DNA from: Crossaster papposus
Lineage: Eukaryota; Echinodermata; Asteroidea; Velatida; Solasteridae
Assembly (NCBI GenBank): GCA_037893245.1
Contig: JBAIAA010000454.1
Span: 186,001-250,000 of the forward strand
DNA: 64,000 bases
Reading direction: 5' to 3'
Every line of letters begins with the position of its first letter. Position 1 is the first letter of the stretch. The position numbers were made by a program, and so were the translations under genes. Shown one piece after another: positions 34,978 through 59,396 of this stretch. The notes beneath the pieces are model-generated. The model worked only from the letters and a program-made list of their open reading frames with translations, was not told the DNA's origin and did not search any database.

Positions 34978-35031
<54 letters not shown>

Positions 35032-35318
35032 ATAACGACCAATCCGGGGATAGGATGACCGGTCCATAGAAACGTACGGTAAAATTTACTTTTTTATTTG
35101 TAACCTAACCCGTTTTTACCTGAAGCTTTTGCCACAAAATTAAAAATCTATAGGGTAATGTACCGAAATCTATCGACATACTCAATAACATTTTAAAAAA
35201 TGAAATTTTATCGAGTACTTGGGTGTTCGGTCGACCACCAAACGGTCATCCTAACGTCGGTGGTCATCCCAATGTCGTAAACATACTGCAATCGGTCATC
35301 CCATCCGCGAAAAGGTAA

Positions 35319-35364
<46 letters not shown>

Positions 35365-36041
35365 GTTCCTTGGTACGTGGCATGTAGCATTGGATTTGTA
35401 ATATGTAGGTAAAGCTACAGATTTTTGGTTCGAGTCCGGCCTGGGACTATGGTGTGTGTGCCCTTGGGCAAGGCACTTTGTCAATCATTGCTTCTCCCCA
35501 CCCACGGTGAGGGCAGAGATAGTTATTGTGATTGATTTTAGCTGCTTTGCGCAGGAATGGCAGCATCGAGCTGTATACTCCCAAGGGATCTGAGATGGTA
35601 TTTGGAATGTTTCATGGGCTCAATGACCGGGGTAATAATGTGAGAGCCCCATGAGTACCAATCTTGGTAGATACGTGCGCTATAAAAGAAATGCCTAATA
35701 TTATATTACCCAAATGTTTGCTTCCAATTTTTGCTATTTTCAATTTAATGAAATGAAAATAAAATGAACAATTAAACAAACAACATACAATACCAAATTG
35801 CGAGAACAAAAATATGTTCTATTTATTGAACAGATATATTTCTAGTTGAAATTATTTGTGTGTGTGGGGGTGTCCTCACCAACTTGCATTAGAACGCCCG
35901 CATTCGTGCCATCGGTCGAGAACAGGACCATTGCGGCGTACGGAGCCCTGATAGCGAAGTCCAAGACAGTCTCGTCGTCATGAAAGGTAGGGAATGGGAA
36001 CTCACGCTGATACGGTGATAGCTGGTAGGTGGTACCGCACA
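30222..36041 (-). CDS. Methyltransf_FA (farnesoic-acid-methyltransferase-like) domain protein, last two exons
   Basis: Minus-strand exons are 36041-35880 and 30514-30222 (TAA), joined in phase 1 (donor G|GTGAGG, acceptor TTACAG). The first reads YQLSPYQREFPFPTF, LDFAIRAPYAAMVLF and AGVLMQVG. The second reads EFRRFWLRYNRGTFAVGK, FLEWAATPPL and GIYDSPQTWIF. Together these are the two halves of a Methyltransf_FA domain (PF12248), widespread in marine invertebrates, often in secreted or membrane proteins; the enzymatic activity implied by the name is doubtful. The first exon needs one base from an upstream exon, so the N-terminus lies beyond 36041 and was not found. The 5.4-kb intron is full of mobile elements. 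The stop codon touches the end of a transposon. Confidence 0.75.
30720..31099. mobile_element. TTAA MITE, GGGATCGTATACG family, copy 1
   Basis: It is flanked by TTAA (30716-30719 and 31100-31103), with termini GGGATCGTATACGTTT and AAACGTGTACGATCCC. The interior includes GACGTTTCTCAG and CTTCGAAGTACTGCGGTTAT. Its reverse-orientation paralogue is at 60104-60490. Confidence 0.85.
31340..32460. mobile_element. Old single copy of the L-type Helitron-like unit
   Basis: Diverged matches to the array at 44.8-59.4 kb occur in the same order: AATCACGTGACCCC, GGTCCAAACCGGAAGTGCC, TAGCGCCCTC, AGTTTGCTTGAATCACG, ATGACGTCACTAGACC, CCCTGCGGCACCCTTGAAAT and finally GGGCGCCGC...GGCAGGTAAG near 32420-32445. 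About 300 bp of unrelated sequence (about 32060-32390) interrupts it. Confidence 0.7.
33017..34078 (+). mobile_element. L2/CR1-type LINE, 5'-truncated
   Basis: It contains the 3' half of an ORF2 (33038-33937), a short 3' UTR with a CTGCGCCTTGAACACC motif and GCGCATTACAAATC, then an (ATT)n tail ending near 34078. The upstream boundary is about 33017, where homology to the RT palm stops. It is sense to the window, antisense to the surrounding Methyltransf_FA intron. Confidence 0.85.
33038..33937 (+). pseudogene. Non-LTR reverse transcriptase, C-terminal 299 codons
   Basis: It begins inside RT with PIRDII and the catalytic YADDTQLY box, then LKLNDDKTEFLLFG, LGVIFDSSM, TSRLDNGNALFYGLP, RLQNTAARMV, LHWLPVSQRIIFKLML and the WNSLPLNLR / FKSLLKTYL end typical of L2/CR1/Jockey-clade elements. 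The frame is intact but lacks the endonuclease and the first half of RT, so it is a dead-on-arrival 5' truncation. It cannot be functional alone. Confidence 0.88.
34085..34978. mobile_element. Old copy of the S-type Helitron-like unit
   Basis: It starts with ACTCGTGTCTTGCAGACA and ATGATGACGTCATCATGAGT and continues with a first ETS block (CTTCCGATCCAAACCGAAAG, about 34280) and a second one (about 34627). It then has TAGTGCCCCCTTGCGGCAG and TTTGCTAAAATCAC. Order matches the array units at 44.8-59.4 kb with heavy divergence. The (TA)n run follows directly. Confidence 0.65.
34979..35029. repeat. (TA)n microsatellite
   Basis: About 25 uninterrupted TA units. A second run of about 20 units lies 290 bp away at 35320-35361. 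Confidence 0.97.
35320..35361. repeat. (AT)n microsatellite
   Basis: About 20 uninterrupted AT units. The sequence between this and the first run repeats GGTCATCC several times. Confidence 0.97.
35395..35705 (+). mobile_element. SINE-like retroelement
   Basis: A B-box-like GGTTCGAGTCC lies near 35430, followed by the CCCTTGGGCAAGGCACTTTG block shared by many animal SINEs. The LINE-like 3' end is GCGCTATAAAAGAAATGCC with an ATT-rich tail. The 5' third is eroded and no clear target duplication is visible. Confidence 0.65.
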
Positions 36042-40876: not shown

Positions 40877-40991
40877 TTGGCTTTTTCGCAATTTGCGAAA
40901 AAGCCTTTGTTTTTGTTCTGATTTTTTTGGCTTTTTCGCAATTTTGCGAAAAAGCCTTTGTTTTTGTTCTGATTTTTTTTTTGGCTTTTTC
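40877..40991. repeat. Hairpin minisatellite, left block
   Basis: Units are GGCTTTTTCGC, a short AT spacer, GCGAAAAAGCC and TTTGTTTTTGTTCTGATTTT. Two full units precede the sequence GGCTTTTTCGCTTAAAGACC, where the 3.3-kb segment starts. Confidence 0.9.
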
Positions 40992-41397
40992 GCTTAAAGA
41001 CCTACAATAACGGTTTTAAAATTGCTTGAATTATATGTTATTGTGTTCAGTATATAATAAACTACACATTTATTCCAAAACAATGTTTGTTATGCGTATA
41101 CATTTTGTGTTATTTTGCGATAAATTCTGGACGGTTTTTGTCGAGTTATTGAAAACTTTCCACAAATTGACCGCTGGCGGCGCTGTTGAGAAACGAACAA
41201 TGTCTGACGTACTACCTGAGAAAACTAATAAAACTGGTACCCGTTTGACGGCTGGTTTCGGTTATGCATGTCTACACATAAATGCACGTACGCACCCGTA
41301 CGGGTGCGTACCCCCATGACCGATTCGTGCTTTTGCTAACGAGGTGGACGCTTTGTACTCGTCAAGTTTATAATTTTGTCTCCATGCTTTAACAAAA

Positions 41398-41629
41398 ATG
41401 CCTAAATCCTGTGTGGTTGGTGGTTGTACACGAAATTCTGCCAAAGAACTGAAATTGCGATTTTTTGAATTCCCGAAGAATGAGACCGTTCGGCGACAGT
41501 GGATCAAGTTTGTTGAGACGACGCGGTCAGACTTCTGTGTATCAAAATGGAGTCTCGTCTGTGGCGAGCATTTCAGTGCCGATTGTCAGGACCCGCAGTC
41601 CAAAATGAAAGCCACGTTGGGGATCGTTT
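41398..41629 (+). CDS. THAP zinc-finger exon (5' exon of a THAP protein)
   Basis: ATG at 41398 opens MPKSCVVGGCTRNSAKELKL, followed by RFFEFPKN, RRQWIKFV, SKWSLVCGEHFSADC. This is a full C2CH THAP finger, a DNA-binding fold with the CxxxxC, W, F-P and C-x2-H-F landmarks; the C-terminal AVPxxF-type motif is not evident. The open frame stops at 41640. A donor TTT|GTAAGG at 41630 after 77 codons would avoid the stop, so I annotate to 41629. No downstream exon was found; the ballast gene lies on the other strand. It may be a transposase N-terminus or a host THAP gene fragment. Confidence 0.65.
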
Positions 41630-41840
41630 GTAAGGACTAGTAAGGACTCTAACAAGAAAATTAAGGGTAACAAATAAGTACATGTAGTTGGGTACGATGT
41701 AGTCCACAAACGAAGTGTTATAAAAGTTCATTCCGGTTTTGTTTATTTTAAAGACTAGACATGGTAACAAGTGAGTATTTAGTCCACAACAGATCGAGAA
41801 AAACAAAAAAAAAAATTTCGGGTCATTTCACAAACCTTAA

Positions 41841-42068
41841 AGTAGAATACACCATTTGCAGATATCAACAATATTTATTAGTAATGTCTTACTTATTTGA
41901 AAGTAAATAATGATTCTGGGCATCCAACAAAATTAAATTTAAAAAAAACCCAGAACATAATAATCACTGCCTGAGAACGCCGTTTTTCTTGCTTTTTCCA
42001 GCATCCATGATTGTAAAACGATATTTACTATAAAATACAACCCTACAAATCCACGCAAATGGTTTATC
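41841..42068. mobile_element. TTAA MITE, truncated copy
   Basis: It begins TTAAAGTAGAATACACCATT and includes TGAAAGTAAATAATGATTCT, CAGCATCCATGATTGTAAAA and ATATTTACTATAAAATACAA in family order. The right terminus ends early at GGTTTATCC. Confidence 0.65.
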
Positions 42069-42106
42069 CGAAGGTTCAAACAAATTACAAGGTTCCCAGT
42101 CGTTAA

Positions 42107-42406
42107 AGGTATGTTACACATTTGCATATATCAAAAATATTTACTACCGAATTATTAAGAAATATCTTACTTATTATTTGAAAGTAAATAATGATTATAG
42201 GCATCCAGCAAAATGATTGCGCTAGATAGTAGATATCCTGTAATAATTCCGAAAAATAGAATTGTATAACAAATTGTTGTTCATGCTTTTCTCGGCATCC
42301 ATGATTGTTAAACTTCGCAAAGGTCAGTTAAAGCGATATTTACTATATAATACAACCCCCAAAATCTACCCATTCATGATGCAATTACCAATGGTGTATC
42401 CTACCT
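42107..42406. mobile_element. TTAA MITE, best-preserved copy of the AGGTAGGATACAC family
   Basis: Flanked by TTAA (42103-42106 and 42407-42410). Termini are AGGTATGTTACAC and GTGTATCCTACCT. It is 300 bp with no coding capacity. Related pieces in this window lie near 4410-4520, 4633, 5250, 11540, 18213, 21330, 37870 and 41841. Confidence 0.85.
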
Positions 42407-42544
42407 TTAACTAAAATTCATAATAAGGAAAGGACAATATAATTATTTTAAAGTTGGGTTGTACATATATGTAAAATAAAGACCGTTTAACTTGGAAAGC
42501 GAATTTCCCCTAAAGCAATTTTCTTGTGTCATTTATTTGAGTAA

Positions 42545-43872
42545 CTAATCAAGGGGCGGGTATTTAAAACCTTTGTACTGGCCATCTGGATTGGGGTAGG
42601 TCCTACGAATAGTATCCATCACACAAGATGGAAGCGGTACTCGGTTGAAACGGCCCAGGTATCCCCAACACCATCTCACTACTTGTCGATAAGCAACATG
42701 GCGAAACTTTCTGAAATGAAAAGAATGCAGATTGCTAATGTTATCAAGTTTAATACTTATGTACAGATAAATGTTTTTATTATCAAATTCTTTGGACAAG
42801 GATGCCCAACAATTTTTCTGATGCGAACAGGGTTGGAACTGTATTAATAGAGCTGCCGAAATTGATAATCACGTGGGGCTATCTTCACAGAAAATAAGGG
42901 CAAGGGTTCCATACATGAACATCGCTTGAAGTGTTTTCTCAGTAAATGCTTCAATATCTGTCCTGCTAATTTGGAAAATTGCTAATTTTTAAATTTATAA
43001 GTACATGTACTTACTGGTCAACTGTTCCCTCAACAACATGCCTGCCATATTGTGTCTGGTACTGCATATGTGCAGTTTGTAGAGTTGCAGGATGTAAGCA
43101 GCAAGCTTCAAACCAAGGGTGTTGGGTTAGGCACTGGTTGTGATCGTCAACGTTCACCTCTAACTCGGTCATTTTATTTGCCGTCTTTTCCACTTCCTTG
43201 CAACAAATGTTATTCAGTGCACACTGCTGAATTGTACACCTTCCACATGTACACCTGTTAATGATAAGATACACCATGTAAGGATTGGAAAAAGTTGACA
43301 AAATGAACATATAAAATGATATATAGCCAGCGTAATTGCAACTGACTTTCAAAATACACGTACATAAAAGCATGACAACTTTCTTTATCATCAACCATGC
43401 ATGGATTTGATAAGTCAATGGGCCGCCGTATAAGCACCGGTACGGCAGATTGCAGCCCCGCACAAGACACTGACAAAAATGAGAAACTCAACACGCAAAT
43501 GTGCAAAACATGTTCGTCATTTTTTGTAAAGAAACAATCTACTGGAAACGGCATTTAACATATATGAAATTGATATTTGTATCGACATCGCAGTTCTTAC
43601 CAATCTGTATTTAGAAGACGGTTTGGGTCGCCTTCGTTGTCCATTTCTGGGGCGACTTCGTCCGGTCCTACGACGGGCTCGTACCGGTACGGCTCCACAC
43701 CGCGGATTCCGTTGTGGACCTCCTCACCCTCTGACTCGTTATCGTCTTCTCCGTCTTCTTCATACGACGAAGAACCAGCCAAACTGCTGTCTGAACTAGA
43801 ATTACTTTTACGTGAATACAATTCTTCCTCATCGAAGCTGTGTTGTTCCCAAGAATCATCACTTTCGGTCAT
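42545..43872 (-). CDS. P2X7-ballast-domain (zinc-binding) protein, 3 exons
   Basis: Minus-strand exons are 43872-43601, 43254-43015 and 42710-42545 (TAG). All junctions are GT-AG in phase 2, giving 225 residues. Residues 1-90 are acidic and Ser-rich (TESDDSWEQHSFDEEEL, SYEEDGEDDNESEGEE) with GVEPYRYEP. Residues about 91-170 are Cys-rich: CTCGRCTIQQC, ICCKEVEK, QCLTQHPWFEACCL. Then follow RHVAYRQVVRWCWGYLG, PLPSCVMDTIRR and PNPDGQYKGFKYPP. This matches the cytosolic ballast domain at the C-terminus of vertebrate P2X7 receptors, a zinc- and guanine-nucleotide-binding module. In many invertebrates it occurs as stand-alone, multi-copy genes of unknown function. No P2X channel is attached here. 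It sits between inverted repeats, next to a THAP exon on the other strand. The identification is strong. Confidence 0.9.
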
Positions 43873-44295
43873 CTTAAAACTAAATTCACGCGAAAATACA
43901 CCCCCGTATTGAACTGAAGGAAAGTCGTATTGAACACTGGATTAACCGTACGTGCACTAATGTACACATGTACTGTACATGTACATTGTACGTCCGATTA
44001 CCGTACGTCTATACAATGCGCGTGGGTCGTGGTGTTGTTGCGTGCAGCTTTCTCGCTGATCAACGGTCACACGTCACCGAATTCGCTATTCATTAGATGC
44101 TAATGAGCTTTGACGTCACGCTCCTTTTTACAAAAGCAGCATTGACTCGCGCAAAAAAGGGCTACAAAAATGCTATTTTTCTCGGAAACACGTGCGTGAA
44201 AAAATATATATTGACACATTCCTGTTTTATTAGACATCGCTCTTCTGAATAGGACTTCAATATAAGAAAATTCGAAAACCGTTAAAGTAGGTCTT

Positions 44296-44832
44296 TAAAA
44301 GCGAAAAAGCCTTTGTTTTTGTTCTGATTTTTTTTTTTTTTTTTTTTTGGCTCTTTCGCAATTTTGCGAAAAAGCCTTTGTTTTTGTTCTGATTTTTTTT
44401 TTTTTTTTTTTTTTTTTTTGGCTTTTTCGCAATTTTGCGAAAAAGCCTTTGTTTTTGTTCTGATTTTTGTTTTTTTGTTTTTTTTGTTTTGGCTTTTTCG
44501 CAAATTTTGCGAAAAAGCCTTTGTTTTTGTTCTGATTTTTTTTTTTTTTTTTGGCTTTTTCGCAATTTTGCGAAAAAGCCTTTGTTTTTGTTCTGATTTT
44601 TTTTTTTCTTCTTTTTTTTTTTTTTTGGCTTTTTCGCTTAAAAGCGAAAAAGCCTTTGTTTTTGTTCTGATTTTTTTTTTTTTTTTTTTTTTTTGGCTTT
44701 TTCGCAATTTTGCGAAAAAGCCTTTGTTTTTGTTCTGATTTTTTTTTTTCTTTTTTTTTTTGGCTTTTTCGCAAATTTTGCGAAAAAGCCTTTGTTTCTG
44801 TTCTGATTTTTTTTTTCTTCTTCTTCTTCTTT
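44296..44832. repeat. Hairpin minisatellite, right block (about nine units)
   Basis: Units of about 50-60 bp contain GCGAAAAAGCC, TTTGTTTTTGTTCTGA, a T-tract of 10-21 bases and GGCTTTTTCGC, so each junction forms a perfect 11-bp stem. The T-tract length varies most. Long Lys- or Phe-rich open frames here are artefacts of the repeat. Shorter blocks recur at about 48226-48420, 51648-51780 and 55526-55600, each directly after a Helitron-like 3' end. Confidence 0.93.
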
Positions 44833-44842
44833 TTTTCTTTTA

Positions 44843-47800
44843 GTAACCTAAACTCCATAGACTTTGTACACGTTTTTTCTGCCAGTCACTTTTAATAGAA
44901 AACAAAGTCGTATTTCCATAAAACTTAACCCAGGTGAAGACCCTATAGTGAACTCGTGTCTCGCCGAAAAACGTAATGGTGACGTCATCAGGGGTCACGT
45001 GACGTCATCTTAAAGGTGTAATTGATTTAATCTTTGAAAATCAATAACAAATCAACCGCAAAAGACCGAAACTTAATTTTTGTGGCAATAGATAGAATAA
45101 TCCAGGATCTTAATTTTATCTCGTGTGCGTGAAATCACGTGACCCTTCCTTCCGGTCTAAACCGGAAGTGCCTCATACTTTGAAAGTGAAAAATGATATG
45201 AACTTACTTTCAACGATGTTAGTGTCTGGCTACAATGTATTTTTCAAAAAAAATATTGGTGACGTCATAACATGTTATAGCGCCCTCTAGCGGCAGTTAA
45301 AAAAATTGTTAAAATGAATAATATGTTGATGTGTGTGGCGAAGTTTGCTGAAATCACTTTATAACCGGTGTATTTAATCAGCTTCATGGTAGGAACAAGT
45401 TGACGGGAAGAAAAAATTATGACGTCACCAGACCGGAAGTTAGAATGAAAAGACTCCTTTTCCTTTGAAAATTCGTAAAAAATTAATCCTGACAGATACA
45501 ATCTTGATTTTTGCTCTAAAGGTTAATGTAAAAGTAGTTCTCGAACTTCCCTGTGTTTTGGGGCAAAAAACGAACTTGAACATACCCTGCGGCACCCTTG
45601 AAATGTAATCGTTTTGGCCTAGGTGCAAAAAGCATTGACCCCTCACGTACGTGTGTATGGCACACGTATAATATACATGCTAGTACATGTACGTATACAC
45701 TGATAGTGTATTATGTATTGAGCGAATGTATCACCACTGACATCGTTCGTGCAAGCACATGTACGCTTACCCAAGAGGACACTAGCCGCCAACCTGTGAA
45801 ACAGGATGACGTCAACAAATTGCCCATGGGGAAGGGCGCCGCGTACGACAGGTAGGTAAACACGCTTTCGGCTACGCAGAATCCAACCCCGTAGACTTTG
45901 TAAACGTTGCTTGCACAATTCAAAGCACTTTTAACGGAAAAACAAAGTCGTATTCCCATAAACTTGACCCAGGTGAAGACCCAATAGTGAACTCCAGTCT
46001 CGCCGACAGACACCACGAGGAAGACGTCATCAGGGCCACGTGACCTTATCTTAAAGGTGCAATTGATTTAATCTTTAAAAATAAATAACAAATCAACCAC
46101 AAAAGACCGAAACTTGATTTTTGTGGCAATAGATAGAATTATCCAGAATCTTCATTTTATCTCGTGTGCTAAAATCACGTGACCCTTCCTTCCGGTCCAA
46201 ACCGGAAGTGCCTCATAATTTGAAAGTGAAAAATGATATGAACTTACTTTCAACGATGTTAGTTTCTGGCTAGAATAAACTTTTCCAAAAAAAATCAGGC
46301 GACGTCATAATATGTTATAGCGCCCTCTAGCGGCAGGTTGAAAAATGGTTAAAATGAATAATCTGTTGATGTGTGTGGCGAAGTTTGCTGAAACCACTTT
46401 ATAACCGGTGTATATAATCAGCTTCATGCTTAGACCATATTGGGAAGGAGAAATATTTATGACGTCACCAAACCGGAAGTTACAATGAAAAATCCTTTAA
46501 ACCTTAAACAATCGCTTAAAAATCACCCGCTATAGATATAATCCAGATTTTTGCATCAGATAGCAAAGTAAAGACAGCTCTCGAGCTTTATGTTAATTAC
46601 GTCACGATGACGTCATCAAATGTCAGATTACAAGCAACCAAATATTTATAGATTTAATCTTTGAAAATCAATATAAAATCAACTGTAAGAGATCTGATTT
46701 AGATTTTTAAGGAAATTGATAGATTAATCCATGGTCTTCATAATTTGTATTACATGCAAAAAGACTTGACACTTCCTTCCGGTCCAAACCGGAAGTGCCT
46801 TATAATTTAAAAGTGGAAAACGATGCTAACTTACTTTCAACGATGTTAGGCGCTGGCTAGGTTGTAAGTAACAAAAAAGTTAACAGTGACTTCATAAAAT
46901 GTTAAAGCGCCCTCTAGCGTCATGTTGACAAATGTTACGTCATATTACGATTATATTTGAATTATTACGTTTTTAGACCTTTAAGGCATATCTCAGCAAC
47001 GGATCGTGTTAACATAACACCTCATTTTGTGTTGTTAGGTGATAGATAGTTGCACAAAAAGTTCACAAACGTGTGACGTCAAACGTGTGACGTAATCCAG
47101 ATTTTTGCTTTAAATAGCAAAGTTAAGACAGCTCTCGATAGATAGAATAATTAAAGATCTTCATTTCAACTCATGTGCGTGAAATCACGTGACCCTTCCT
47201 TCCGGTCCAAACCGGAAGTGCCTTATAATTTAAAACTGAAAAATGATATGAACATACTTTCAACGATGTTAGTGTCTGGCTAGAATAAACTTTTCAAAAT
47301 AATTACCGGCGACGTCATAACACGTTATAGCGCCCTCTAGCGGCAGGTTGAAAAATGGTTAAAATGAATAATCTGTTGATGTGTGTGGCGAAGTTTGCTG
47401 AAATCACTTTATAACCGGTGTATATAATCAGCTTCGTGCTAACAACATATTGAGAAAGAGATTTATTGATGACGTCACCAAACCGGAAGTTACAATGAAA
47501 AGACCTTAAAACCTTAAAACGTCGCTTAAAAATCAACCGCGATAGATATAATCCAGATTTTTGCTTTAAATAGCAAAGTTAAGACAGCTCTCGAGCTTTC
47601 TGTTAATTACGTCACGATGACGTCATCAAGTGTCAAATTACAAGCAACCAAATATTTCTAAATTTAATCTTTGAAAATCAATATAAAATCAACTGTGAGA
47701 GATCTGATTTAGATTTTTAGGGGGATTGATAGATTAATCCATGGTCTTCATAATTTGTATTACATGCAAAATGACCTGACACTTCCTTCCGGTCCAAACC

Positions 47801-48218
47801 GGAAGTTCCTTATAATTTAAAAGTAAAAAACGATGTGAACTTACTTTCAACGATGTTAGGAGCTGGCTAGATTGTAAGTAACAAAAATTTTAACAGTGAC
47901 TTCATAAAATGTTAAAGCGCCCTCTAGCGTCATGTTGACAAATGTTACGTCATATTACGATTATATTTGAATTATTACGTTTTTAGACGTTGAAGGCATA
48001 TCTCAGCAAAGGAACATAACAACTCATTTTGTGTTGTTAGGTGATAGATAGTTGCACAAAAAGTTCAGAAACGTGTGACGTCATCGTTTTAATCAGTTTG
48101 AATTTATTTTAATCTGTTTAAATTAACTTAAATTCGGTTTTTTTTAAAACAAATACTCTAAAAAAATGCGAAAGCGAAAAAGCCCTATGTTCTGTTCCTT
48201 GAACAGACGTAGTTCTAG
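44843..48218 (+). mobile_element. Helitron-like unit 1 (L followed by repeated S modules)
   Basis: It opens GTAACCTAAACTCCATAGAC after a T-rich tract and ends with hairpin TCTGTTC..GAACAGA, then ACGTAGTTCTAG at 48218. L part: ETS palindrome near 45146, the CCCTGCGGCACCCTTGAAAT block and the GGGCGCCGCGTACGACAG block near 45850. A second internal start (CCCCGTAGACTTTGTAAACG near 45890) leads into S-type modules with ETS palindromes near 46180, 46773, 47190 and 47780. It is larger than the other units because the S module is partly duplicated. It has no protein-coding capacity. Confidence 0.75.
44969..45300 (+). promoter_or_regulatory. Representative composite of CRE, E-box, ETS and CTCF-like motifs
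   Basis: In order: GTGACGTCATCAGGGGTCAC overlapping GTCACGTGACGTCATC (CRE palindrome TGACGTCA twice, E-box TCACGTGA), then AATCACGTGACCC (second E-box). Next is CTTCCGGTCTAAACCGGAAG (two ETS sites tail to tail), GTGACGTCATAAC, and TATAGCGCCCTCTAGCGGCA, which resembles a CTCF core. The same order recurs in every unit of the array. The motif matches are direct observations; protein binding is inferred. Confidence 0.5.
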
Positions 48219-48430
48219 TTTTTTGGCTTTTTCGCAAATGCGAAAAAGCCTTTGTTTTTGTTCTGATTTTTTTTTTTCTTTTTTGGCTTTTTCGCAAATG
48301 CGAAAAAGCCTTTGTTTTTGTTCTGATTTTTTTTTTTCTTTTTTTTGGCTTTTTCGCAAGTTGCGAAAAAGCCTTTGTTTTTGTTCTGATTTTTTTTTTC
48401 TTCTTCTTCTTTTTTTCTTTTTTTCTTTTA

Positions 48431-49803
48431 GTAACCTAAACCCCATAGACTTTGTACACGTTTTTTTGCACAAGTACTTTTACCAGAAAACAAAGTCGTA
48501 TTTTTATAAAACTTAACCCAGGTGACGACCCTATAGTGAACTCGTGTCTCGCAGAAATACGTCATGGTGACGTCATCAGGGATCACGTGACGTCATCTTA
48601 AAGGTGTAATTGATTTAATCTTTGAAATTAAATAACAAATCAACCGCAAAAGACCGAAACTTGATTTTTGTGGCAACATATAGAATAATCCAGGATCTTC
48701 ATTTTATCTCGTGTGCGTAACATCACGTGACCCTTCCTTCCGGTCCAAACCAGAAGTGCCTTATAATTTAAAACTGGAAAATGATATGAACTTACTTTCA
48801 ACGATGTTAGTGTCTGGCTAGAATAAACTTTTCAAAAAAATTACCGGCGACGTCATAATACGTTATAGCGCCCTCTAGCGGCAGGTTGAAAAATCGTTAA
48901 AATGCATAATTTGTTGATGTGTGTGGCGAAGTTTGCTGAATTCACTGTATAACCGGTGTATATAATCAGCTTCGTGCTAAGAACATATTGAAAAAGAGAA
49001 ATATTGATGACGTCACCAAACCGGAAGTTACAATGAAAAGACCTTTAAACCTTAAAAAGTCGCTTAAAAATCAACCGCGATAGATATATTCCAGATTTTT
49101 GCTTCAAATAGCAAAGTTAAGACAGCTCTTGAGCTTTCTGTTAATTACGTCACGATGACGTCATCAAGTGTCAGATTATAAGCAACCAAATATTTATAGA
49201 TTTAATCTTTGAAAATCAATATAAAATCAACTGTAAAAGATCTGATTTAGATTTTTAAGGGGATTGATAGATTAATCCATGGTCTTCATATCTGTATTAC
49301 ATGCAAACAAAACCTGACAATTCCTTCCGGTCTAAACCGGAAGTGCCTTATAACTTAAAAGTGGAAAACGATGTGAACTTACTTTTAACAATGTTAGGCG
49401 CTGGCTAGGTTGTAAGTAACAAAAAAGTTAACGGTGACTTCATAAAATGTTAAGGCGCCCTCTAGCGGCATGTTGACAAATGTTACGGCATATTACGATT
49501 ATATTTGAATTGTTACGTTTTTAGACCTTGAAGCCATATCTCAGCAACGGATCTTGTTAATATACCACCTCATTTTGTATAGTTAGGTTATAGATAGTTG
49601 CAAACAAAGTTCACAAACGTGTGACGTCAACGTTTTAATCATTTTGAAATAATTGTAATCTGTTTAAATTAATTTAAATTCGTTTTTAATGATTTCAAAT
49701 TGTTTTGATAGTAACAAAGTTCAAATTTTGAAAACAAATATTCTAAACAATTCCGAATACGAAAAAGCCCTATGTTCTGTTCCTCGAACAGACGTAGTTC
49801 TAG
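48431..49803 (+). mobile_element. Helitron-like unit 2 (S type, 1.37 kb)
   Basis: Start GTAACCTAAACCCCATAGAC. End hairpin TCTGTTCCTCGAACAGA plus CGTAGTTCTAG. ETS palindromes near 48731 and 49320 and CTCF-like cores near 48866 and 49454. Followed directly by a T/C tract and the next unit. Confidence 0.75.
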
Positions 49804-49824
49804 TTTCTTCTTTTTTTTCTTTTA

Positions 49825-51647
49825 GTAACCTAATTCCCATAGACTTTGTACACGTTTTTTTGCACAAGTACTTTTACCAGAGAACAAAGTCGTATTTCCA
49901 TAAAACTTAACCCAAGTGAAGACCCTATAGTAATCTCGTGCCTAGCCGACATACGACATGGTGACGTCATCAGGGGTCACGTGACGCCATCTTAAAGGTG
50001 CAATTGATTTAATCTTTGAAAATCAATAACAAATCAACCGCAAAAGACCGAAACTTGATTTTTGTGGCAACAGATAGAATAATACAGGATCTTCATTTTA
50101 TCTCATGTGCGTGAAATCACGTGACCCTTCCTTCCGGTCTAAACCGGAAGTGCCTCATAATTTGAAAGTGAAAAATTATATGAACTTACTTTCAACGATG
50201 TTAGTGTCTGGCTACAGTGTATTTTTCAAAAAAAATATTGGTGACGTCATAACATGTTATAGCGCCCTCTAGCGGCAGTTTGAAAAATTGTTAAAATTAA
50301 TAATCTGTTGATGTGTGTGGCAAAGTTTGCTGAAATCACTTTATAACCGGTGTATTTAATCAGCTTCATGCTAGGAACAAGTTGACGGGAAGAAAAAATT
50401 ATGACGTCACCAGACCGGAAGTTAGAATGAAAAGACTCCTTTTCCTTTGAAAATTCCTAAAAAATTAAACGTGACAGATACAATCTTGATTTTTGCTCTA
50501 AAGGTTAATGTAAAAGTAGTTCTCGAACTTCCCTGTGTTTTGGGGCAAAAAACGAACTTGAACATACCCTGCGGCACCCTTGAAATGTAATCGTTTTGGC
50601 CTAGGTGCAAAAAGCATTGCCCCCGTATGTGTGCATGGCACACGTATATTATACATGTACATGCATGTACATGTACATGTACATACACATCTATAGTGTA
50701 TTATGTATTGAGCGAATGTATCACTACTGACATTGTAAGCACATGCACATGTACGCTCACTAGAGAGGACACTAGCCGACAACATGTGAAACAGGTTGAC
50801 GTCATCAAATTGCCCACGGGGAAGGGCGCCGCGTACGACAGGTAGGTAAACACGCTTTGGGCGACGCAGAATCCAACCCCATAGACGTTGTAAACGTTGT
50901 TTGCTCGATTCGATGCACTTTTAACGGAAAAACAAAGTCGTATTCCCATAAAACTTAACCCAGGTGAATACCCTATAGTAAACTCGTGTCTCGCAGACAT
51001 ACGTCATGGTGACATTATCAGGGGTCACGTGACGTCATCTTAAAGTTGTAATTGATTTAATCTTTGAAAATTAATAAAAAATCAACCGCAAAAGACCAAA
51101 ACTTGATTTTTGTGGCAATAGATTAAGGATCTTCATTTCATCTCGTGTGCGTGAAATCACGTGACCCTTCCTTCCGGTCCAAACCGGAAGTGCCTTATAG
51201 TTTAAAAGTGGAAAACGATGTGAACTTATTTTCAACGATGTTAGGCGATGGCTAGGTTGTAAGTAACAACAAAGTTAACGGTAAATTCATAAAATGTTAC
51301 AGTGCCCTCTAGCGGCATGTTGGCAAATGGTACGTCATATTACGATTATATTTGAATTATTACGTGTTTAGACCTTTAAGCCATATCTCAGCAACGAAAC
51401 GTGCTAACATAACAACTTTTTTTATTGTTAGGTGATAGATAGTTGCACAAAAAGTTCACAAACGTGTGACGTCATCGTTTTAATCAGTTTGAATTAATTT
51501 TAATCTGTTTAAATTAACTTAAATTCGTTTTCAATAATTTTAAATTGTTTTGATGGTATAAAAGTTCAATTTTTGAAAAATTTAATCTAAAAAATTGCGA
51601 ATGCGAAAAAGCCCTATGTTCTGTTCCTCGAACAGACGTAGTTCTAG
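49825..51647 (+). mobile_element. Helitron-like unit 3 (L plus shortened S)
   Basis: The L part has an ETS palindrome near 50126, the CCCTGCGGCACCCTTGAAAT block near 50568 and donor-like GACAG|GTAGGT at 50841. The second half retains only one ETS/CTCF module (near 51166 and 51304). It ends hairpin plus CTAG at 51647. Confidence 0.72.
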
Positions 51648-51790
51648 TTGGCTTTTTCGCAATTTTGCGAAAAAGCCTTTGTTTTTGTTCTGATTTTTTA
51701 TTTTTTTTGGCTTTTTCGCAATTTTGCGAAAGAGCCTTTGTTTTTGTTCTGATTTTTTTTTTTCTTCTTCCTCTTTTTCTTTTTCTTTTA

Positions 51791-54195
51791 GTAACCTAAA
51801 CCCCATAGACTTTGTGCACGTTTTTTTGCACAAGTACTTTTACCAGAAAACAAAGTCGTATTTCCATAAAACTTAACCCAGGTGAAGACCCTATAGTGAA
51901 CTCGTGTCTCGCAGAAATACGTCATGGTGACGTCATCAGGGGTCACGTGACGTCATCTTAAAGGTGTAATTGATTTAATCTTTGAAATTCAATAACAAAT
52001 CAACCCCAAAAGACCGAAACTAAATTTTTGTGGCAATAGATAGAATAATCCAGGATCTTCATTTTATCTCGTGTGCGTGAAATCACGTGACCCTTCCTTC
52101 CGGTCTAAACCGGAAGTGCCTCATAATTTGAAAGTGAAAAATGATATGAACTTACTTTCAACGATGTTAGTGTCTGGCTACAATGTATTTTTCAAAAAAA
52201 ATATTGGTGACGTCATAACTTGTTATAGCGCCCTCTAGCGGCAGTTTGAAAAATTGTTAAAATGAATAATCTGTTGATGTGTGTGGCGAAGTTTGCTGAA
52301 ATCACTTTATAACCGGTGTATTTAATCAGCTTCATGCTAGGAACAAGTTGACGGGAAGAAAAAATTATGACGTCACCAGACCGGAAGTTAGAATGAAAAG
52401 ACTCGTTTTCCTTTGAAAATTCCTAAACAATTAAACCTGACAGATACAATCTTGATTTTTGCTCTAAAGGCCAATGTAAAAGTAGTTCTCGAACTTCCCT
52501 GTGTTTTGGGGCAAAAAACGAACTTGAACATACCCTGCGGCACCCTTGAAATGTAATCGTTTTGGCCTAGGTGCAAAAAGCATTGACCCCTTACGTGTGC
52601 ATGGCACCCGTATAATATACATGCTATTACATGTACGTATACACTGATAGTGTATTATGTATTGAGCGAATGTATCACCACTGACATCGTTGGTGCAAGC
52701 ACATGTACGCTCACCCAAGAGGACACTAGCCGCCAACCTGTGAAACAGGATGACGTCATCAAATTGCCCATGGGGAAGGGCGCCGCGTACGACAGGTAGG
52801 TAAACACGCTTTCGGCTACGCAGAATCCAACCCCGTAGACTTTGTAAACGTTGCTTGCACAATTCAAAGCACTTTTAACGGAAAAACAAAGTCGTATTCC
52901 CATAAACTTGACCCAGGTGAAGACCCAATAGTGAACTGGTGTCTCGCAGACAGACGTCATGATGACGTCATCAGGAGTCACGTGACGTCATCTTAAAGGT
53001 TCAATTGATTTTATCTTTGAAAATCAATAAAACATCAACCGCAATTGACCGAAACTTGAATTTTGTGGCAATTAATAGAATAATCCAGGATCTTCATTTT
53101 ATCTCGTGTGCGTGAAATCACGTGACCCTTCCTTCCGGTCAAAACCGGAAGTGCCTTATAATTTGAAAGTGAAAAATGATATGAACTTACTTTTAACGAT
53201 GTTATTGTCTGGCTAGAATAAACTATTCAAAAAAATTCCGGCGACGTCATAACATGTTATAGCGCCCTCTAGCGGCAGGTTGAAAATGGTTAAAATGATT
53301 AATCTGTTGATGTGTGTTGCGAAGTTTGCTGAAATAACTTTATAACTGATGTATATAATCAGCTTCATGCTTAGACCATATTGGGAAGGAAAAATATTTA
53401 TGACGTCACCAAACCGGAAGTTACAATAAAAAATCCTTTAAACTGTAAAAAGTCGCTTAACAATCAACCGCTATAGATATATCCAGATTTTTGCTTCAAA
53501 TAGCAAAGTTAAGACTGATCTCGAGTTTCTGTTAATTACGTCACAATGACGTCATCAAGTGTCAGATTACAAGCAACCAAATATTTCTAAATTTAATCTT
53601 TGAAAATCAATATAAAATCAACTGTAAGAGATCTGATTTAGATTTTTAAGGAAATTGATAGATTAATCCATGGTCTTCATAATTTGTATTACATGCAAAA
53701 AGACCTGACACTTCCTTCCGGTCCAAACCGGAAGTGCCTTATAATTTAAAAGTAAAAAACGATGTGAACTTACTTTCAACGATGTTAGGAGCTGGCTAGG
53801 TTGTAAGTAACAAAAAATGTTAACCGTGGCTTTATAAAATGTTAAAGCGCCCTCTAGCGTCATGTTGACAAATGTTACGTCATATTACGATTATGTTTGA
53901 ATTATTACGTTTTTAGACGTAGAAGGCATATCTCAGCAAAGGATCGTGTTAACATAACACCTCATTTTGTGTTGTTAGGTGATAGATAGTTGCACAAAAA
54001 GTTCAGAAACGTGTGACGTCATCGTTTTAATCAGTTTTAATTCATTTTACTCTGTTTAAATTAACTTAAATTAGTTTTCAATGATTTTAAATTGTTTTGA
54101 TGGTTTAAAAGTTCAATTTTTGAAATATTTAATAAAAAAAAATTGCGAATGCGAAAAAGCCCTATGTTCTGTTCCTCGAACAGACGTAGTTCTAG
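51791..54195 (+). mobile_element. Helitron-like unit 4 (L+S, 2.41 kb)
   Basis: Full L+S order, with ETS palindromes near 52090, 53126 and 53710. It is co-linear with unit 6 over its whole length, so units 4+5 and 6+7 form a higher-order repeat with a period of about 3.83 kb. Confidence 0.75.
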
Positions 54196-54215
54196 TTTTT
54201 TTTTTTTTTCTTTTA

Positions 54216-55525
54216 GTAACCTAAACTCCATAGACTTTGTACACGTTTTTTTGCACAAGTACTTTTACCAGAAAACAAAGTCATATTTCCATAAAACTTA
54301 ACCCAAGTGAAGACCCCATAGTAAGCTCGTGCCTAGCAAACATACGTCATGGTGACGTCATCAGGGATCACGTGACGTCATCTTAAAGGTGCAATTGATT
54401 TAATCTTTGAAAGTCAATAACAAATCAACCGCAAAAGACCTAAACTTGATTTTTGTGACAATAGATAGAATAATTAAGGATCTTCATTTCATCTCATGTG
54501 CGTGAAATCACGTGACCCTTCCTTCCGGTCCAAACCGGAAGTGCCTTATAATTTAAAACTGGAAAATGATATGAACTTAATTTTAACGATGTTAGTGTCT
54601 GGCTAGAATAAACTTTTCAAAAAATTACCGGCGACGTCATAACACGTTATAGCGCCCTCTAGCGGCAGGTTGAAAAATGGTTAAAATGCATAATTTGTTG
54701 GTGTGTGTGGCGAAGTTTGCTGAAATCACTTCATAACCGGTGTATATAATCAGCTTCGTGCTAAGAACATATTGAGAAAGAGATTTATTGATGACGTCAC
54801 CAAACCGGAAGTTACAATAAAAAGACCTTAAAACCTTAAAACGTCGCTTAAAAATCAACCACGATAGATATAATCCAGATTTTTGCTTTAAATAGCACAG
54901 TTAAGACAGCTCTCGAGCTTTCTGTTAATTACGTCACGATGACGTCATCAAGTGTCAGATTACAAGCAACCAAATATTTCTAAATTTAATCTTTGAAAAT
55001 CAATATAAAATCAACTGTAAGAGATCTGATTTAGATTTTTAGGAGAATTGATAGATTAATCCATGGTATTCATAATTTGTATTACATGCAAAAAGACCTG
55101 ACACTTCCTTCCGGTCCAAACCGGAATTTCCTTATAATTTAAAAGTAAAAAACGATGTGAACTTACTTTCAACGATGTTAGGAGCTGGCTAGGTTGTAAG
55201 TAACAAAAATGTTAACCGTGGCTTTATAAAATGTTAAAGCGCCCTCTAGCGTCATGTTGACAAATGTTACGTCATATTACGATTATGTTTGAATTATTAC
55301 GTTTTTAGACGTAGAATGCATATCTCAGCAAAGGATCGTGTTAACATAACACCTCATTTTGTGTTGTTAGGTGATAGATAGTTGCACAAAAAGTTCAGAA
55401 ACGTGTGACGTCATTTGAATTTATTTTAATCTGTTTAAATTAACTTAAATTCGTTTTTTTTTTTTTTAAATACTCAAAAAAAATGCGAAAGCGAAAAAGC
55501 CCTATGTTCTGTTCCTTGAACAGAC
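54216..55525 (+). mobile_element. Helitron-like unit 5 (S type, 1.31 kb)
   Basis: Start GTAACCTAAACTCCATAGAC. ETS palindromes near 54507 and 55105. Ends hairpin TCTGTTC..GAACAGA and CTAG at 55522-55525, then one hairpin-minisatellite unit. Confidence 0.75.
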
Positions 55526-55611
55526 GTAGTTCTAGTTGGCTTTTTCGCAATTTTGCGAAAAAGCCTTTGTTTTTGTTCTGATTTTTTTTTTCTTCTTCTT
55601 TTTTTCTTTTA

Positions 55612-58024
55612 GTAACCTAAACCCCATAGACTTTGTACACGTTTTTTTGCACAAGTACTTTTACCAGAAAACAAAGTCGTATTTCCATAAAACTTAACCC
55701 AGGTGAAGACCCTATAGTGAACTCGTGTCTCCCAGAAATACGTCATGGTGACGTCATCAGGGGTCACGTGACGTCATATTAAAGGTGTAATTGATTTAAT
55801 CTTTGAAATTCAATAACAAATCAACCGCAAAAGACCGAAACTTGATTTTTGCGGCAATAGATAGAATAATCCAAGATCTTGATTTTATCTCGCGTGTGTA
55901 AAATCACGTGACCCTTCCTTCCGGTCTAAACCGGAAGTGCCTCATAATTTTAAAGTGAAAAATGATATGAACTTACTTTTAACGATGTTAGTGTCTGGCT
56001 ACAATGTATTTTTCAAAAAAAATATTGGTGACGTCATAACATGTTATAGCGCCCTCTAGCGGCAGTTTGAAAAAATTTTAAAATGAATAATCTGTTGATG
56101 TGTGTGGCGAAGTTTGCTGAAATCACTTTATAACCGGTGTATTTAATCAGCTTCATGCTAGGAACAAGTTGACGGGAAGAACAAATTATGACGTCACCAG
56201 ACCGGAAGTTAGAATGAAAAGACTCCTTTTCCTTTGAAAATTCCTAAAAAATTAAACTTGACAGATACAATCTTGATTTTTGCTCTAAAGGTTAATGTAA
56301 AAGTAGTTCTCGAACTTCCCTGTGTTTTGGGGCAAAAAACGAACTTGAACATACCCTGCGGCACCCTTGAAATGTAATCGTTTTGGCCTAGGTGCATTGA
56401 GCATTGACCCCTTACGTGTGCATGCCACACGTATAATATACATGTACATGCTAGTACATGTACGTATACACCGATAGTGCATTATCTATTGAGCGAATGT
56501 ATCACCACTGACATCGTTCGTGCAAGCACATGTACGCTCACCCAAGAGGACACTAGCCGCCAACCTGTGAAACAGGATGACGTCATCAAATTGCCCATGG
56601 GGAAGGGCGCCGCGTACGACAGGTAGGTAAACACGCTTTCGGCTACGCAGAATCCAACCCCGTAGACTTTGTAAACGTTGCTAGCACAATTCAAAGCACT
56701 TTTAACGGAAAACCAAAGTCGTATTCCCACAAACTTGACCCAGGTGAAGACCCAATAGTGAACTCCAGTCTCGCCGACAGACACCACGAGGAAGACGTCA
56801 TCAGGGCCACACGACCTTATCTTAAAGGTGCAATTGATTTAATCTTTGAAAATCAATAAAACATCAACCGCAAAAGACCGAAACTTGAATTTTGTGGCAA
56901 TTAATAGAATAATCCAGGATCTTCATTTTATCTCCTGTGCGTGAAATCACGTGACCCTTCCTTCCGGTCAAAACCGGAAGTGCCTTATAATTTGAAAGTG
57001 AAAAATGATATGAACTTACTTTTAACGATGTTATTGTCTGGCTAGAATAAACTATTCAAAAAATTCCGGCGACGTCATGACATGTTATAGCGCCCTCTAG
57101 CGGCAGGTTGAAAATGGTTAAAATGATTAATCTGTTGATGTGTGTTGCAAAGTTTGCTGAAATAACTTTATAACTGGTGTATATAATCAGCTTCATGCTT
57201 AGAGCATATTGGGAAGGAGAAATATTTAAAACGTCACCAAACCGGAAGTTACAATAACAAAATCCTTTAAACTTAAAAAAGTCGCTTAAAAATGAACCGC
57301 TATAGATATAATCCAGATTTTTGCTTCAAATAGCAAAGTTAAGACTGATCTCGAGTTTCTGTTAATTACGTCACAATGACGTCATCAAGTGTCAGATTAC
57401 AAGCAACCAAATATTTCTAAATTTAATCTTTGAAAATCAATATAAAATCAACTGTAAGAGATCTGATTTAGATTTTTAAGGAAATTGATAGATTAATCCA
57501 TGGTCTTCATAATTTGTATTACATGCAAAAAGACCTGACACTTCCTTCCGGTTCAAACCGAAAGTGCCTTATAATTTAAAAGTGGAAAACGATGCTAACT
57601 TACTTTCAAAGATGTTAGGCGCTGGCTAGGTTGTAAGTAACAAACAAGTTAACAGTGACTTCATAAAATGTTAAAGCGCCCTCTAGCGTCATGTTGACAA
57701 ATGTTACTTCATATTACGATTATATTTGAATTGTTACGTTTTTAGACGTTGAAGGCATATCTCAGCAACGGATCGTGTTAACATAACACCTCATTTTGTG
57801 TTGTTAGGTGATAGATAGTTGCACAAAAAGTTCACAAACGTGTGACGTCATCGTTTTAATCAGTTTTAATTCATTTTACTCGGTTTAAATTAACTTAAAT
57901 TAGTTTTCAATGATTTTAAATTGTTTTGATGGTTTAAAAGTTCAATTTTTGAAATATTTAATTAAACAAAATTGTGAATGCGAAAAAGCCCTATGTTCTG
58001 TTCCTCGAACAGACGTAGTTCTAG
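55612..58024 (+). mobile_element. Helitron-like unit 6 (L+S, 2.41 kb)
   Basis: Near copy of unit 4 in order and length. ETS palindromes near 55916, 56956 and 57540. Donor-like GACAG|GTAGGT at 56622. Ends CTAG at 58021-58024. Confidence 0.75.
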
Positions 58025-58061
58025 TTTTTTCTTCTTCTTTTTTTTTTTTTTTGTTCTTTTA

Positions 58062-59396
58062 GTAACCTAAACCCCATAGACTTTGTACACGTTTTTTTGC
58101 ACAAGTACTTTAACCAGAAAACAAAGTCGTATTTTCATAAAACTTAACCCAGGTGAAGACCCTATAGTGAACTCGTGTCTCGCAGAAATACGTCATGGTG
58201 ACGTCATCATGGGTCACGTGACGTCATCTTAAAGGTGTAATTGATTTAATCTTTGAAATTCAATAACAAATCAACCGCAAAAGACCTAAACTTAATTTTT
58301 GTGGCAATAGATAGAATAATCCAGGATCTTCATTTTATCTCGTGTGCGTGAAATCACGTGACCCTTCCTTCCGGTCTAAACCGGAAGTGCCTTATAATTT
58401 AAAACTGAAAAATGATATGAACTTACTTTCAACGATGTTAGTGTCTGGCTAGAATGAACTTTTCAAAAAAATTACCGGCAACGTCATAACACGTTATAGC
58501 GCCCTCTAGCGAGAGGTTGAAAAATTGTTAAAATGCATAATTTGTTGATGTGTGTGGCGAAGTTTGCTGAAATCACTTTATAACCCGTGTATATAATCAG
58601 CTTCGTGCTAAGAACATATTGAGAAAGAGATTTATTGATGACGTCACCAAACCGGAAGTTACAATGAAAAGACCTTAAAACCTTAAAACGTCGCTTACAA
58701 ATCAACCGCAATAGATATATTCCAGATTTTTGCTTCAATAGCAAAGTTAAGACAGCTCTCGAGTTTTCTGTTAATTACGTCACGGTGACGTCATCAAGTG
58801 TCAGATTACAAGCAACCAAATATTTCTAAATTTAATCTTTGAAAATCAATATAAAATCAACTGTAAGAGATCTGATTTAGATTTTTAGAGGAATTGATAG
58901 ATTAATCCATGGTCTTCATAATTTGTATTACATGCAAAAAAACCTGACACTTCCTTCCGGTCCAAACCGGAAGTTCCTTATAATTTAAAAGTAAAAAACG
59001 ATGTGAACTTACTTTCAACGATGTTAGGAGCTGGCTAGGTTGTAAGTAACAAAAATGTTAACAGGGACTTCATAAAATGTTAAAGCGCCCTCTAGCATCA
59101 TGTTGACAAATGTTACGTCATATTACGATTATATTTGAATTATTATGTTTTTAGACGTTGAAGGCAAATCTCAGCAAAGGATCGTGTTAACATAACACCT
59201 TATTTTGTGTTGTTAGGTGATAGATAGTTGCACAAAAAGTTCAGAAACGTGTGACGTCATCGTTTTAATCAGTTTGAATTGATTTTAATCTGTTTAAATT
59301 AACTTAAATTCGGGTTTTTTTGAGAAAAAAATACTCTAAAAAAATGCGAAAGCGAAAAAGCCCTATGTTCTGTTCCTTGAACAGACGTAGTTCTAG
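58062..59396 (+). mobile_element. Helitron-like unit 7 (S type, last of the array)
   Basis: Near copy of unit 5. ETS palindromes near 58366 and 58950. The array ends at CTAG 59393-59396 and is followed by (TTA)n, not by another T/C tract, so this is the authentic outer 3' boundary. Confidence 0.78.

What the first reader, a model, noticed from the sequence alone, without database searches (positions are those of the whole stretch)
44843..59396. Seven head-to-tail non-autonomous Helitron-like elements
Each unit ends in a 7-bp-stem hairpin (TCTGTTC, 3-base loop, GAACAGA), then CGTAGTT and CTAG followed by T. This is the Helitron 3' signature: a hairpin a few bases before CTRR. All seven units point the same way and are joined end to start, as rolling-circle transposition or unequal exchange would produce. 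Lengths alternate between about 1.34 kb (S) and 2.41 kb (L+S), with a 3.83-kb higher-order period for units 4-7. No Rep/helicase is present.
Basis: partly seen in the sequence, partly recalled or inferred. Interest (0 to 1): 0.82.

Follow-up and report, generated by a model that had tools for sequence, protein, structure and literature searches.

The report
Transposons nested inside their own ends
What looks like a tandem row of jumping-gene copies in an animal-like genome is mostly a set of copies that jumped into a T-rich landing strip inside one another, like nested brackets, which gives a readable record of how such arrays grow.

Summary
The seven hairpin/CTAG ends are real and belong to a large family: 2,223 exact 3' ends in the 1.02-Gb genome, reversed-pattern control 0. 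The element is Helentron/HINE-like: 5' TT + palindromic subterminal repeat ("cap"), T-tract, body, matching 3' subterminal repeat, hairpin, CTAG. One insertion was checked against an empty site: it adds TT...CTAG between A and TT. The array starts at 40877, not 44843; a TTAA-flanked THAP element splits its cap stack. The rows are not simply head-to-tail: copies insert into each other's T-tract, leaving stacked caps on the left and cap-less "resumed" bodies on the right. A prediction noted before the letters were read (at least 5 caps for five tails) was met with exactly 5, and a second family encloses them 2:2. Split T-tracts add up again. Genome-wide, stacked:resumed junctions are 899:767. 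Against pure nesting: family 2 is 3,248:608, the window's first block is 10 caps:1 tail, and two of four checkable tract predictions failed. Self-insertion and multi-5' Helitrons are in print; the scale, bracket order and landing tract look new. No autonomous partner was found.

The parts
40877..40993 (+). Left edge of the array: 5' TT and the first caps (GGCTTTTTCGC-n-GCGAAAAAGCC + TTTGTTTTTGTTCTGA + T-run), the third one cut by an insertion
40994..44298 (.). Later insertion into a cap: TTAA-flanked element with inverted ends AGACCTAC..GTAGGTCT and a THAP-domain reading frame (Kolobok-like by recall); the uninterrupted cap form GGCTTTTTCGCTTAAAAGCGAAAAAGCC is present at 44627
44301..44836 (+). 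Rest of the first cap stack (10 caps in all before the first body) and the T-tract
44837..48218 (+). Body 1 and its 3' end (3' subTIR GCGAAAAAGCC 48174-48184, hairpin 48191-48207, CTAG 48215-48218)
48219..48424 (+). Stack of three caps and T-tract
48425..49803 (+). Body 2 (capped) and 3' end; nearest relative is in another array (0.990 over the last 620 nt)
49804..51647 (+). Resumed (cap-less) body 3 and 3' end
51648..54195 (+). Two caps, body 4 (L type) and 3' end
54196..55535 (+). Resumed body 5 (S type) and 3' end
55536..58024 (+). One cap, body 6 (L type) and 3' end
58025..59396 (+). Resumed body 7 (S type) and last 3' end; right flank TTATTATT...
31283..35845 (+). Older, diverged L-type copy with 3' end TGTTCTATTTATTGAACAGATATATTTCTAG followed by TT, broken by a LINE reverse-transcriptase fragment and AT repeats; its 5' end was not recognised

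Best explanation
A non-autonomous Helentron-type (HINE-like) rolling-circle element: 5' TT-[GGCTTTTTCGC-n-GCGAAAAAGCC cap]-TTTGTTTTTGTTCTGA-[T/CTT tract]-CTTTTAGTAACC-body-[GCGAAAAAGCC]-hairpin-CTAG 3'. It inserts at T-rich sites. Because each copy carries a T-tract on the same strand just behind its 5' cap, later copies insert there, in the same direction. Each such insertion stacks the new cap on the old one and leaves the rest of the old copy as a cap-less body behind the new CTAG, so arrays read like well-formed brackets. Extra caps probably come from transposing a nest from its outermost 5' end to the first 3' end, which makes elements with many caps and one tail. Unequal exchange adds local duplications. 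Shown from sequence: ends, one empty site, nested order and tract arithmetic in several arrays. Inferred: a Helentron protein drives the movement, and how extra caps arise.
For: One empty site: the flanks of the L007 insertion (itself a two-copy nest) joined with a single TT match a paralogue at 213/213 nt; 37 of the 40 scored matches (of 178 candidates) span exactly 213 nt. Prediction noted before the letters were read: array A22 with tails X,Y,Z,Z,V must begin with at least 5 caps; it has exactly 5, preceded by 2 caps of a second family, and 2 second-family bodies and tails follow the last family-1 tail before a new cap block begins: [[(((((b)b)b)b)b)f]f]. L007 and the first part of L008 read ((b)b). 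Split tracts minus TT: two Z bodies identical over 620 nt both give T8GT2CT31 from different split points; a V body in A9 gives T11CT27, equal to the unbroken V tract in L007. The nested assignment scores best of 24 in A22 (6 against 8 for the next; references chosen by me). Caps 2,241 (28-nt pattern) against tails 2,223 (18-nt pattern); stacked junctions 899 against resumed 767, controls 0. In 33 listed clusters 63 of 77 caps pair last-in-first-out; 20,000 order shuffles gave mean 46.6, maximum 61. 54 of 55 neighbouring tails within 6 kb share strand. Helentron-type proteins exist in the genome: Helitron_like_N in L042, PIF1 + Exo_endo_phos in the 3' stretches L045 and L046 of two such open frames.
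Against: Window first block: 10 caps, 1 tail; L021 one cap short of its tails. Family 2: stacked 3,248 against resumed 608, far from 1:1, so caps also multiply another way. Left/right tract lengths in the 10 letter-level pairs correlate as nesting predicts but weakly (rho -0.54, p 0.10). Mean identity is higher within arrays (0.898, 107 pairs) than between (0.866, 596 pairs), and the closest relative is in the same array for 12 of 36 units (shuffled labels: mean 5.8, maximum 16 of 2,000), so local duplication contributes. No autonomous element with these ends was found. Only one empty site was tested.
Confidence: 0.8

Rival explanations
1. Rolling-circle concatemers: the 3' terminator is bypassed, so several units are copied head to tail and inserted at once.
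For: 54 of 55 close neighbours share strand and several junctions are exact CTAG|TTGGC. PMC4067079 (passages read) says tandem Helitron clusters are thought to arise by bypass of the termination signal.
Against: Predicts a cap on every unit; 767 resumed junctions leave at most 31 nt after CTAG, too little for a cap. Predicts neighbours to be sisters; 24 of 36 units have their closest relative in another array, some at 0.99-1.00. Does not predict the second family enclosing the first, 2:2.
Confidence: 0.07
2. Satellite-like growth by unequal exchange of an original dimer, with caps as an ordinary minisatellite.
For: A repeat of about 4.58 kb, and a 4.26-kb version, recurs in L015/L014 with parts identical at 0.998-1.000; the window has a 3.83-kb period at 94.5%; mean identity is higher within arrays than between (0.898 against 0.866).
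Against: Does not predict that stacked caps and resumed bodies nearly balance in family 1 (899:767) or that T-tracts of paired pieces add to a type-specific whole. The closest relative lies in another array for 24 of 36 units.
Confidence: 0.08
3. Caps amplified by rolling-circle replication after loss of the 3' terminator, giving multiple 5' ends with one 3' end, as proposed for plant centromeric Helitrons (Xiong et al. 2016, known here only through passages of the review PMC12628747).
For: Fits 10 caps/1 tail in the window and 3,248:608 in family 2.
Against: Gives no cap-less body with an intact tail; cannot make ((b)b). May act beside nesting rather than instead of it.
Confidence: 0.05

Closest known systems
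HINE / DINE-1 elements (non-autonomous Helentrons), Thomas et al. 2014, PMC4067079 (passages and its section on target sites)
   Same: Palindromic subterminal inverted repeats 2-4 nt from the 5' end, matching 3' subTIR, short hairpin near the 3' end, T-rich TT target, variable Ts at the ends, no target duplication, internal repeats
   Different: 3' end is CTAG; 72 of 100 listed copies are in arrays, with self-nesting; autonomous partner not identified here
proto-Helentron-Pi of Phytophthora infestans (PMC4067079, passages)
   Same: 5' TT, 3' CTAG, insertion between A and T
   Different: That element codes for proteins and is called Helitron-like in structure; here there are subTIRs, a T-tract and no gene was seen
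FoHeli self-insertions with multiple 5' termini and one 3' terminus, Fusarium oxysporum (PMC5148889, passages)
   Same: The proposed route: self-insertion, then transposition from the outermost 5' end to the first 3' end
   Different: There one nested example and a number of elements with short 5' duplications; here hundreds of junctions, bracket order seven deep across two families in one array, and a fixed landing tract
[quoted passage not shown]
   Same: Multiple termini explained by nesting
   Different: There multiple 3' ends whose inner ones lost CTAG in 99 of 100 sampled; here inner 3' ends keep CTAG
Cg_HINE elements of the Pacific oyster (PMC7492417, passages)
   Same: subTIR + complementary IR + microsatellite on the left, subTIR + palindrome on the right
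   Different: Carry internal satellite arrays; no nested cap stacks described in the passages read

Membership tests
HINE (non-autonomous Helentron) | 12-15 bp subTIRs, palindromic, 2-4 nt from the 5' end | tested here: met
   11-nt GGCTTTTTCGC starting 2 nt after the 5' end, followed by its complement; one nt shorter than the range stated for mites, equal to the 11-12 bp stated for Cg_HINE
HINE (non-autonomous Helentron) | 3' subTIR complementary to the 5' one, near the 3' end | tested here: met
   GCGAAAAAGCC starts 45 nt before the end; family 2 has its own matched pair; a variant cap at A9 15100 and a variant 3' subTIR GCGGAAAAGCC (L011) pair when brackets are matched by eye
HINE (non-autonomous Helentron) | 5-10 bp palindrome 8-35 nt from the 3' end | tested here: met
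   7-bp stem, 3-nt loop, 11 nt from the end
HINE (non-autonomous Helentron) | T-rich TT target, no target duplication | tested here: met
   One empty site with a single TT; TT before the cap at 7 of 7 left edges and TT after CTAG at 7 of 7 right edges looked at. A 2-bp TT duplication is not excluded there, but two inner junctions read CTAG|TC (L009, L022), which argues that the TT belongs to the element
HINE (non-autonomous Helentron) | Shares its terminal sequence with an autonomous Helentron | tested here: inconclusive
Canonical Helitron (Helitron1) | 5' TC | tested here: not met
   5' end is TTGGC
Canonical Helitron (Helitron1) | 3' CTRR with hairpin about 11 nt before it, insertion between A and T | tested here: met
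   CTAG|T; A before the 5' TT at 5 of 7 left edges, G and T at the other two
Tandem satellite DNA | Units are copies of one period and closest to their neighbours | tested here: not met
   Distances between neighbouring 3' ends run from 1,050 to 5,633 nt, cut at 6 kb; 24 of 36 nearest relatives in other arrays, though mean identity is higher within arrays

The most novel reading that the evidence does not exclude
The T-tract behind the 5' cap is an evolved landing pad: these elements, and at least one second family sharing the same layout, aim at their own kind, so that arrays grow as mutual nests that spare the host and keep a stack of caps as a count of past insertions; nests then move as many-capped elements, ratcheting the cap number up.
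Probability: 0.35. Interest if true: 0.8.

Novelty: new variant of a known kind. Interest (0 to 1): 0.6.

Why it matters
Arrays of this look are easily filed as tandem repeats or rolling-circle concatemers. If they are nests, the order of insertions can be read from the sequence, target choice of a Helentron-type element can be measured on hundreds of natural events, and one origin of satellite-like DNA and of palindromic minisatellites becomes testable.

Tried and rejected
Viral contigs: 0 exact 3' ends. Rfam: 0 matches; tRNA: 0. Autonomous partner: 3 family tails against 4 stretches downstream of Rep/helicase frames gave no score above 30 shuffles for families 1 and 1b; one family-2 score in L046 was just above them (34 against a maximum of 30), is a partial match of about 30 nt and was not counted. 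Counts still wanted but did not complete: tail-to-cap and cap-to-body junctions. A DNA search for the 3' end of the L045 element did not complete. A CTCF/insulator role was considered because of motif density; nothing here tests binding, and the motif names are recalled. Simple concatemers were considered first and dropped. Rows dropped before counts: one search used only units with the exact 18-nt 3' end and at least 620 nt upstream (38 units), leaving out the sister subfamily with the ATA or ATT loop; one search used only exact caps and tails up to C25:1804704 (89 of the 100 listed caps and all 100 listed tails, of 2,241 and 2,223); one search used the 33 clusters with more than one token (77 caps, 85 tails), leaving out 27 single tokens; later pointed to a third cap in the C17 cluster that the exact pattern had missed. 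The ten tract pairs are those I could pair in the loci held, not a random sample.
Full report
What was checked. The window is G000:C454:186001-250000 of a 1.02-Gb, 1,841-contig genome; no tRNA or Rfam match was found in it, and the two proteins recognised among five ORFs scanned are those of eukaryotic mobile elements.

Size of the family. The hairpin occurs at 3,452 places against 2 for the reversed pattern; the 18-nt 3' end GAACAGACGTAGTTCTAG at 2,223 places against 0. Of the first 100 listed, 72 lie in same-strand groups of two or more within 6 kb, and 54 of 55 neighbouring pairs share strand. So arrays are common and not a peculiarity of this window.

True ends. At sampled edges the left end reads TTGGCTTTTTCGC (window, L005, L007, L008, L020, L021; mutated in L012), preceded by A in 5 of 7. 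The right end is CTAG followed by TT in 7 of 7 outer edges looked at. Joining the flanks of L007, a two-copy nest, with a single TT gives a 213-nt sequence that exists uninterrupted elsewhere: best match 100% over all 213 nt, and 37 of 40 scored matches span exactly 213 nt. The insertion therefore adds TTGGC...CTAG, or GGC...CTAG with a TT duplication; there is no TIR and no longer duplication. Two inner junctions read CTAG|TC (L009, L022), which favours a TT that belongs to the element. This is one empty site.

Anatomy. Behind the 5' TT comes an 11-nt subterminal repeat and its complement (the cap), then TTTGTTTTTGTTCTGA, a tract of T and CTT, CTTTTAGTAACC, a body of related subrepeats, a 3' copy of the subterminal repeat, the hairpin and CTAG. 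A second family has the same layout with another repeat (AGCTGTTTCGG / CGAAACAGCT) and a hairpin TGTGTTTGT-CC-ACAAACACA before CTAG. In array A9 one cap has the variant GCTTTTCCGC...GCGGAAAAGC and one printed 3' end has the matching variant GCGGAAAAGCC. They fall together when brackets are paired, although a tail of the sister subfamily stands between them; this pairing was done by eye, uses that mutated tail near A9 17963 and crosses a stretch where bodies lack their own tails, so it is a lead rather than a test. This layout is that of HINE elements as described in PMC4067079 (passages and its section on target sites) and PMC7492417 (passages); TT...CTAG ends with insertion between A and T are described in PMC4067079 for proto-Helentron-Pi.

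The left edge. The cap repeats continue to 40877, cut by an element that sits between two TTAA copies (40994-40997 and 44295-44298), has AGACCTAC..GTAGGTCT ends and carries a THAP reading frame. The uninterrupted cap form GGCTTTTTCGCTTAAAAGCGAAAAAGCC stands intact at 44627. Left flank GTATTA and right flank TTATTATT suggest that the whole array sits in a TTA repeat.

Why not a plain tandem array. Three of the six inner junctions lack a cap and continue with T-tract and CTTTTAGTAACC. Over 38 units from the window and sampled loci, the closest relative of a unit lies in another array in 24 of 36 cases, for instance 0.990 between unit 2 of the window and a unit on contig C5, and 1.000 between units of two arrays on contig C3. 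On the other side, 12 of 36 in the same array is above the mean for permuted labels (5.8; maximum 16 of 2,000), and mean identity is higher within arrays (0.898) than between (0.866), so local duplication also happens.

The nesting test. If a copy inserts into the T-tract of another, the outer cap is left stacked on the inner cap, and the outer body resumes, cap-less, after the inner CTAG. L007 and the first part of L008 read ((b)b). The stretch holds exactly five family-1 caps, preceded by two caps of the second family; after the last family-1 tail come two second-family bodies and tails, and then a new second-family cap block that runs off the locus. The whole is well-formed: [[(((((b)b)b)b)b)f]f] (1,299 nt between the two stretches were not read). 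In the window, everything after the first tail is well-formed too, six caps and six tails: (((b)b)((b)b)(b)b).

Tract arithmetic. Unbroken tracts begin with T10 or T11 and then C in 13 of 14. For ten nested pairs the two halves minus TT were added. L007 gives T11CT3CT8, equal to the unbroken tract of the single copy L020; the two Z bodies of A22, identical over 620 nt, give T8GT2CT31 both, from splits 18+15 and 23+10; the V body of A9 gives T11CT27, equal to unbroken V in L007, and the V body of A22 T11CT31; another unbroken V tract, in A9, is a plain T39. Y of A22 ends CT7CT7 as does Y of the window. The other pairs have no unbroken partner of the same type to compare with. In A22 the nested assignment scores best of all 24. 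Across the ten pairs left and right lengths correlate at rho -0.54, p 0.10, which is only suggestive.

Genome-wide accounting. Caps (28-nt exact) 2,241 against tails (18-nt exact) 2,223; the patterns differ in length, so the equality is rough. Stacked-cap junctions 899 against resumed junctions 767, controls 0. In the part of the genome covered by both lists there are 89 caps and 100 tails; 17 of 33 multi-token clusters balance exactly, and 63 of 77 caps pair last-in-first-out, more than in any of 20,000 shuffles of token order (mean 46.6, maximum 61). A row of simple (b)(b) units would also pair well, so the point is that 22 of the pairs enclose another pair.

Results against. The first block of the window has ten caps and one tail. 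L021 lacks a cap. In the second family stacked junctions outnumber resumed ones 3,248 to 608, so caps multiply by some further route; short exact patterns may undercount resumed junctions but hardly fivefold. Of five tract predictions noted, the letters could not be fetched; from places alone C25 was met (left tract 10) and C18 was met (about 27, from spacing), C22 missed (11 instead of 5-7 or at least 12), C17 missed (6; the right part was probably assigned to the wrong tail, since a third cap came to light), C13 untested. The Fusarium study PMC5148889 (passages) offers a fitting route for extra caps: the transposase nicks the outermost 5' end of a nest and stops at the first 3' end, giving several 5' ends with one 3' end. 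The review PMC12628747 (passages) tells of plant arrays with multiple 5' and a single 3' end, ascribed to rolling-circle amplification.

Who moves it. PF14214 finds at least 150 Rep domains in the genome, many in open frames over 3,000 codons. One such frame carries Helitron_like_N (L042), and the 3' stretches of two (L045, the same frame as L042, and L046) carry PIF1 and Exo_endo_phos, the Helentron combination; another class (L026, L047) has Rep and PIF1, and no endonuclease match in the stretches scanned. None of four downstream stretches clearly holds the family-1, 1b or 2 ends. The link to a Helentron is therefore by structure, not by a shared end.

Novelty. Self-insertion, nested Helitrons and multiple termini are in print (PMC5148889, PMC3288121, passages). 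I call it a new variant of a known kind.

Noticed in passing
40994-44298: TTAA-flanked element with inverted ends and a THAP-domain frame (41398-41637, PF05485 E 9.5e-13), inserted in a cap of the array; Kolobok-like by recall.
   Followed up: partly
40877-59396: Dense transcription-factor-like motifs in the array: GCGCCCTCTAGCG (CTCF-like by recall) 17 forward, 0 reverse, and 0 in 43,479 nt of other window DNA; ACCGGAAGT 27 against 0; TGACGTCA 49 against 8; TCACGTGA 21 against 2. All 17 CTCF-like copies point one way.
   Followed up: partly
L014/L015: Higher-order repeat of about 4.58 kb (and a 4.26-kb version) of a whole nest, (((b)[[)b), with near-identical parts: segmental duplication on top of nesting.
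   Followed up: partly
L016-L019: Copies of the sister subfamily (loop ATA or ATT) share nearly the same right flank TTGTTATTGTTTTTGTC..., so they sit in another repeat at one position or have extended ends.
   Followed up: no
G000, e.g. L042, L045, L046: Helitron_like_N in open frames of more than 3,000 codons, with PIF1 and endonuclease domains in the 3' stretches of two of them.
   Followed up: partly
G000:C5, L022 and L049; genome-wide: A second element family with the same layout and even larger cap stacks (3,248 stacked junctions).
   Followed up: partly
12973-14006: 17-bp minisatellite, 60 copies.
   Followed up: no
40319-40869: 551-bp inverted repeat, arms 91.3% alike, with GCGGCCGC palindromes next to the left edge of the array.
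   Followed up: no
22551-24059: 502-aa open frame matching DDE_Tnp_1_7 (E 6.4e-84), a piggyBac-type transposase by recall.
   Followed up: no
30704-31103 and 60100-60495: 400-bp inverted copies, 92.5% identical; the first lies next to the older diverged copy.
   Followed up: no
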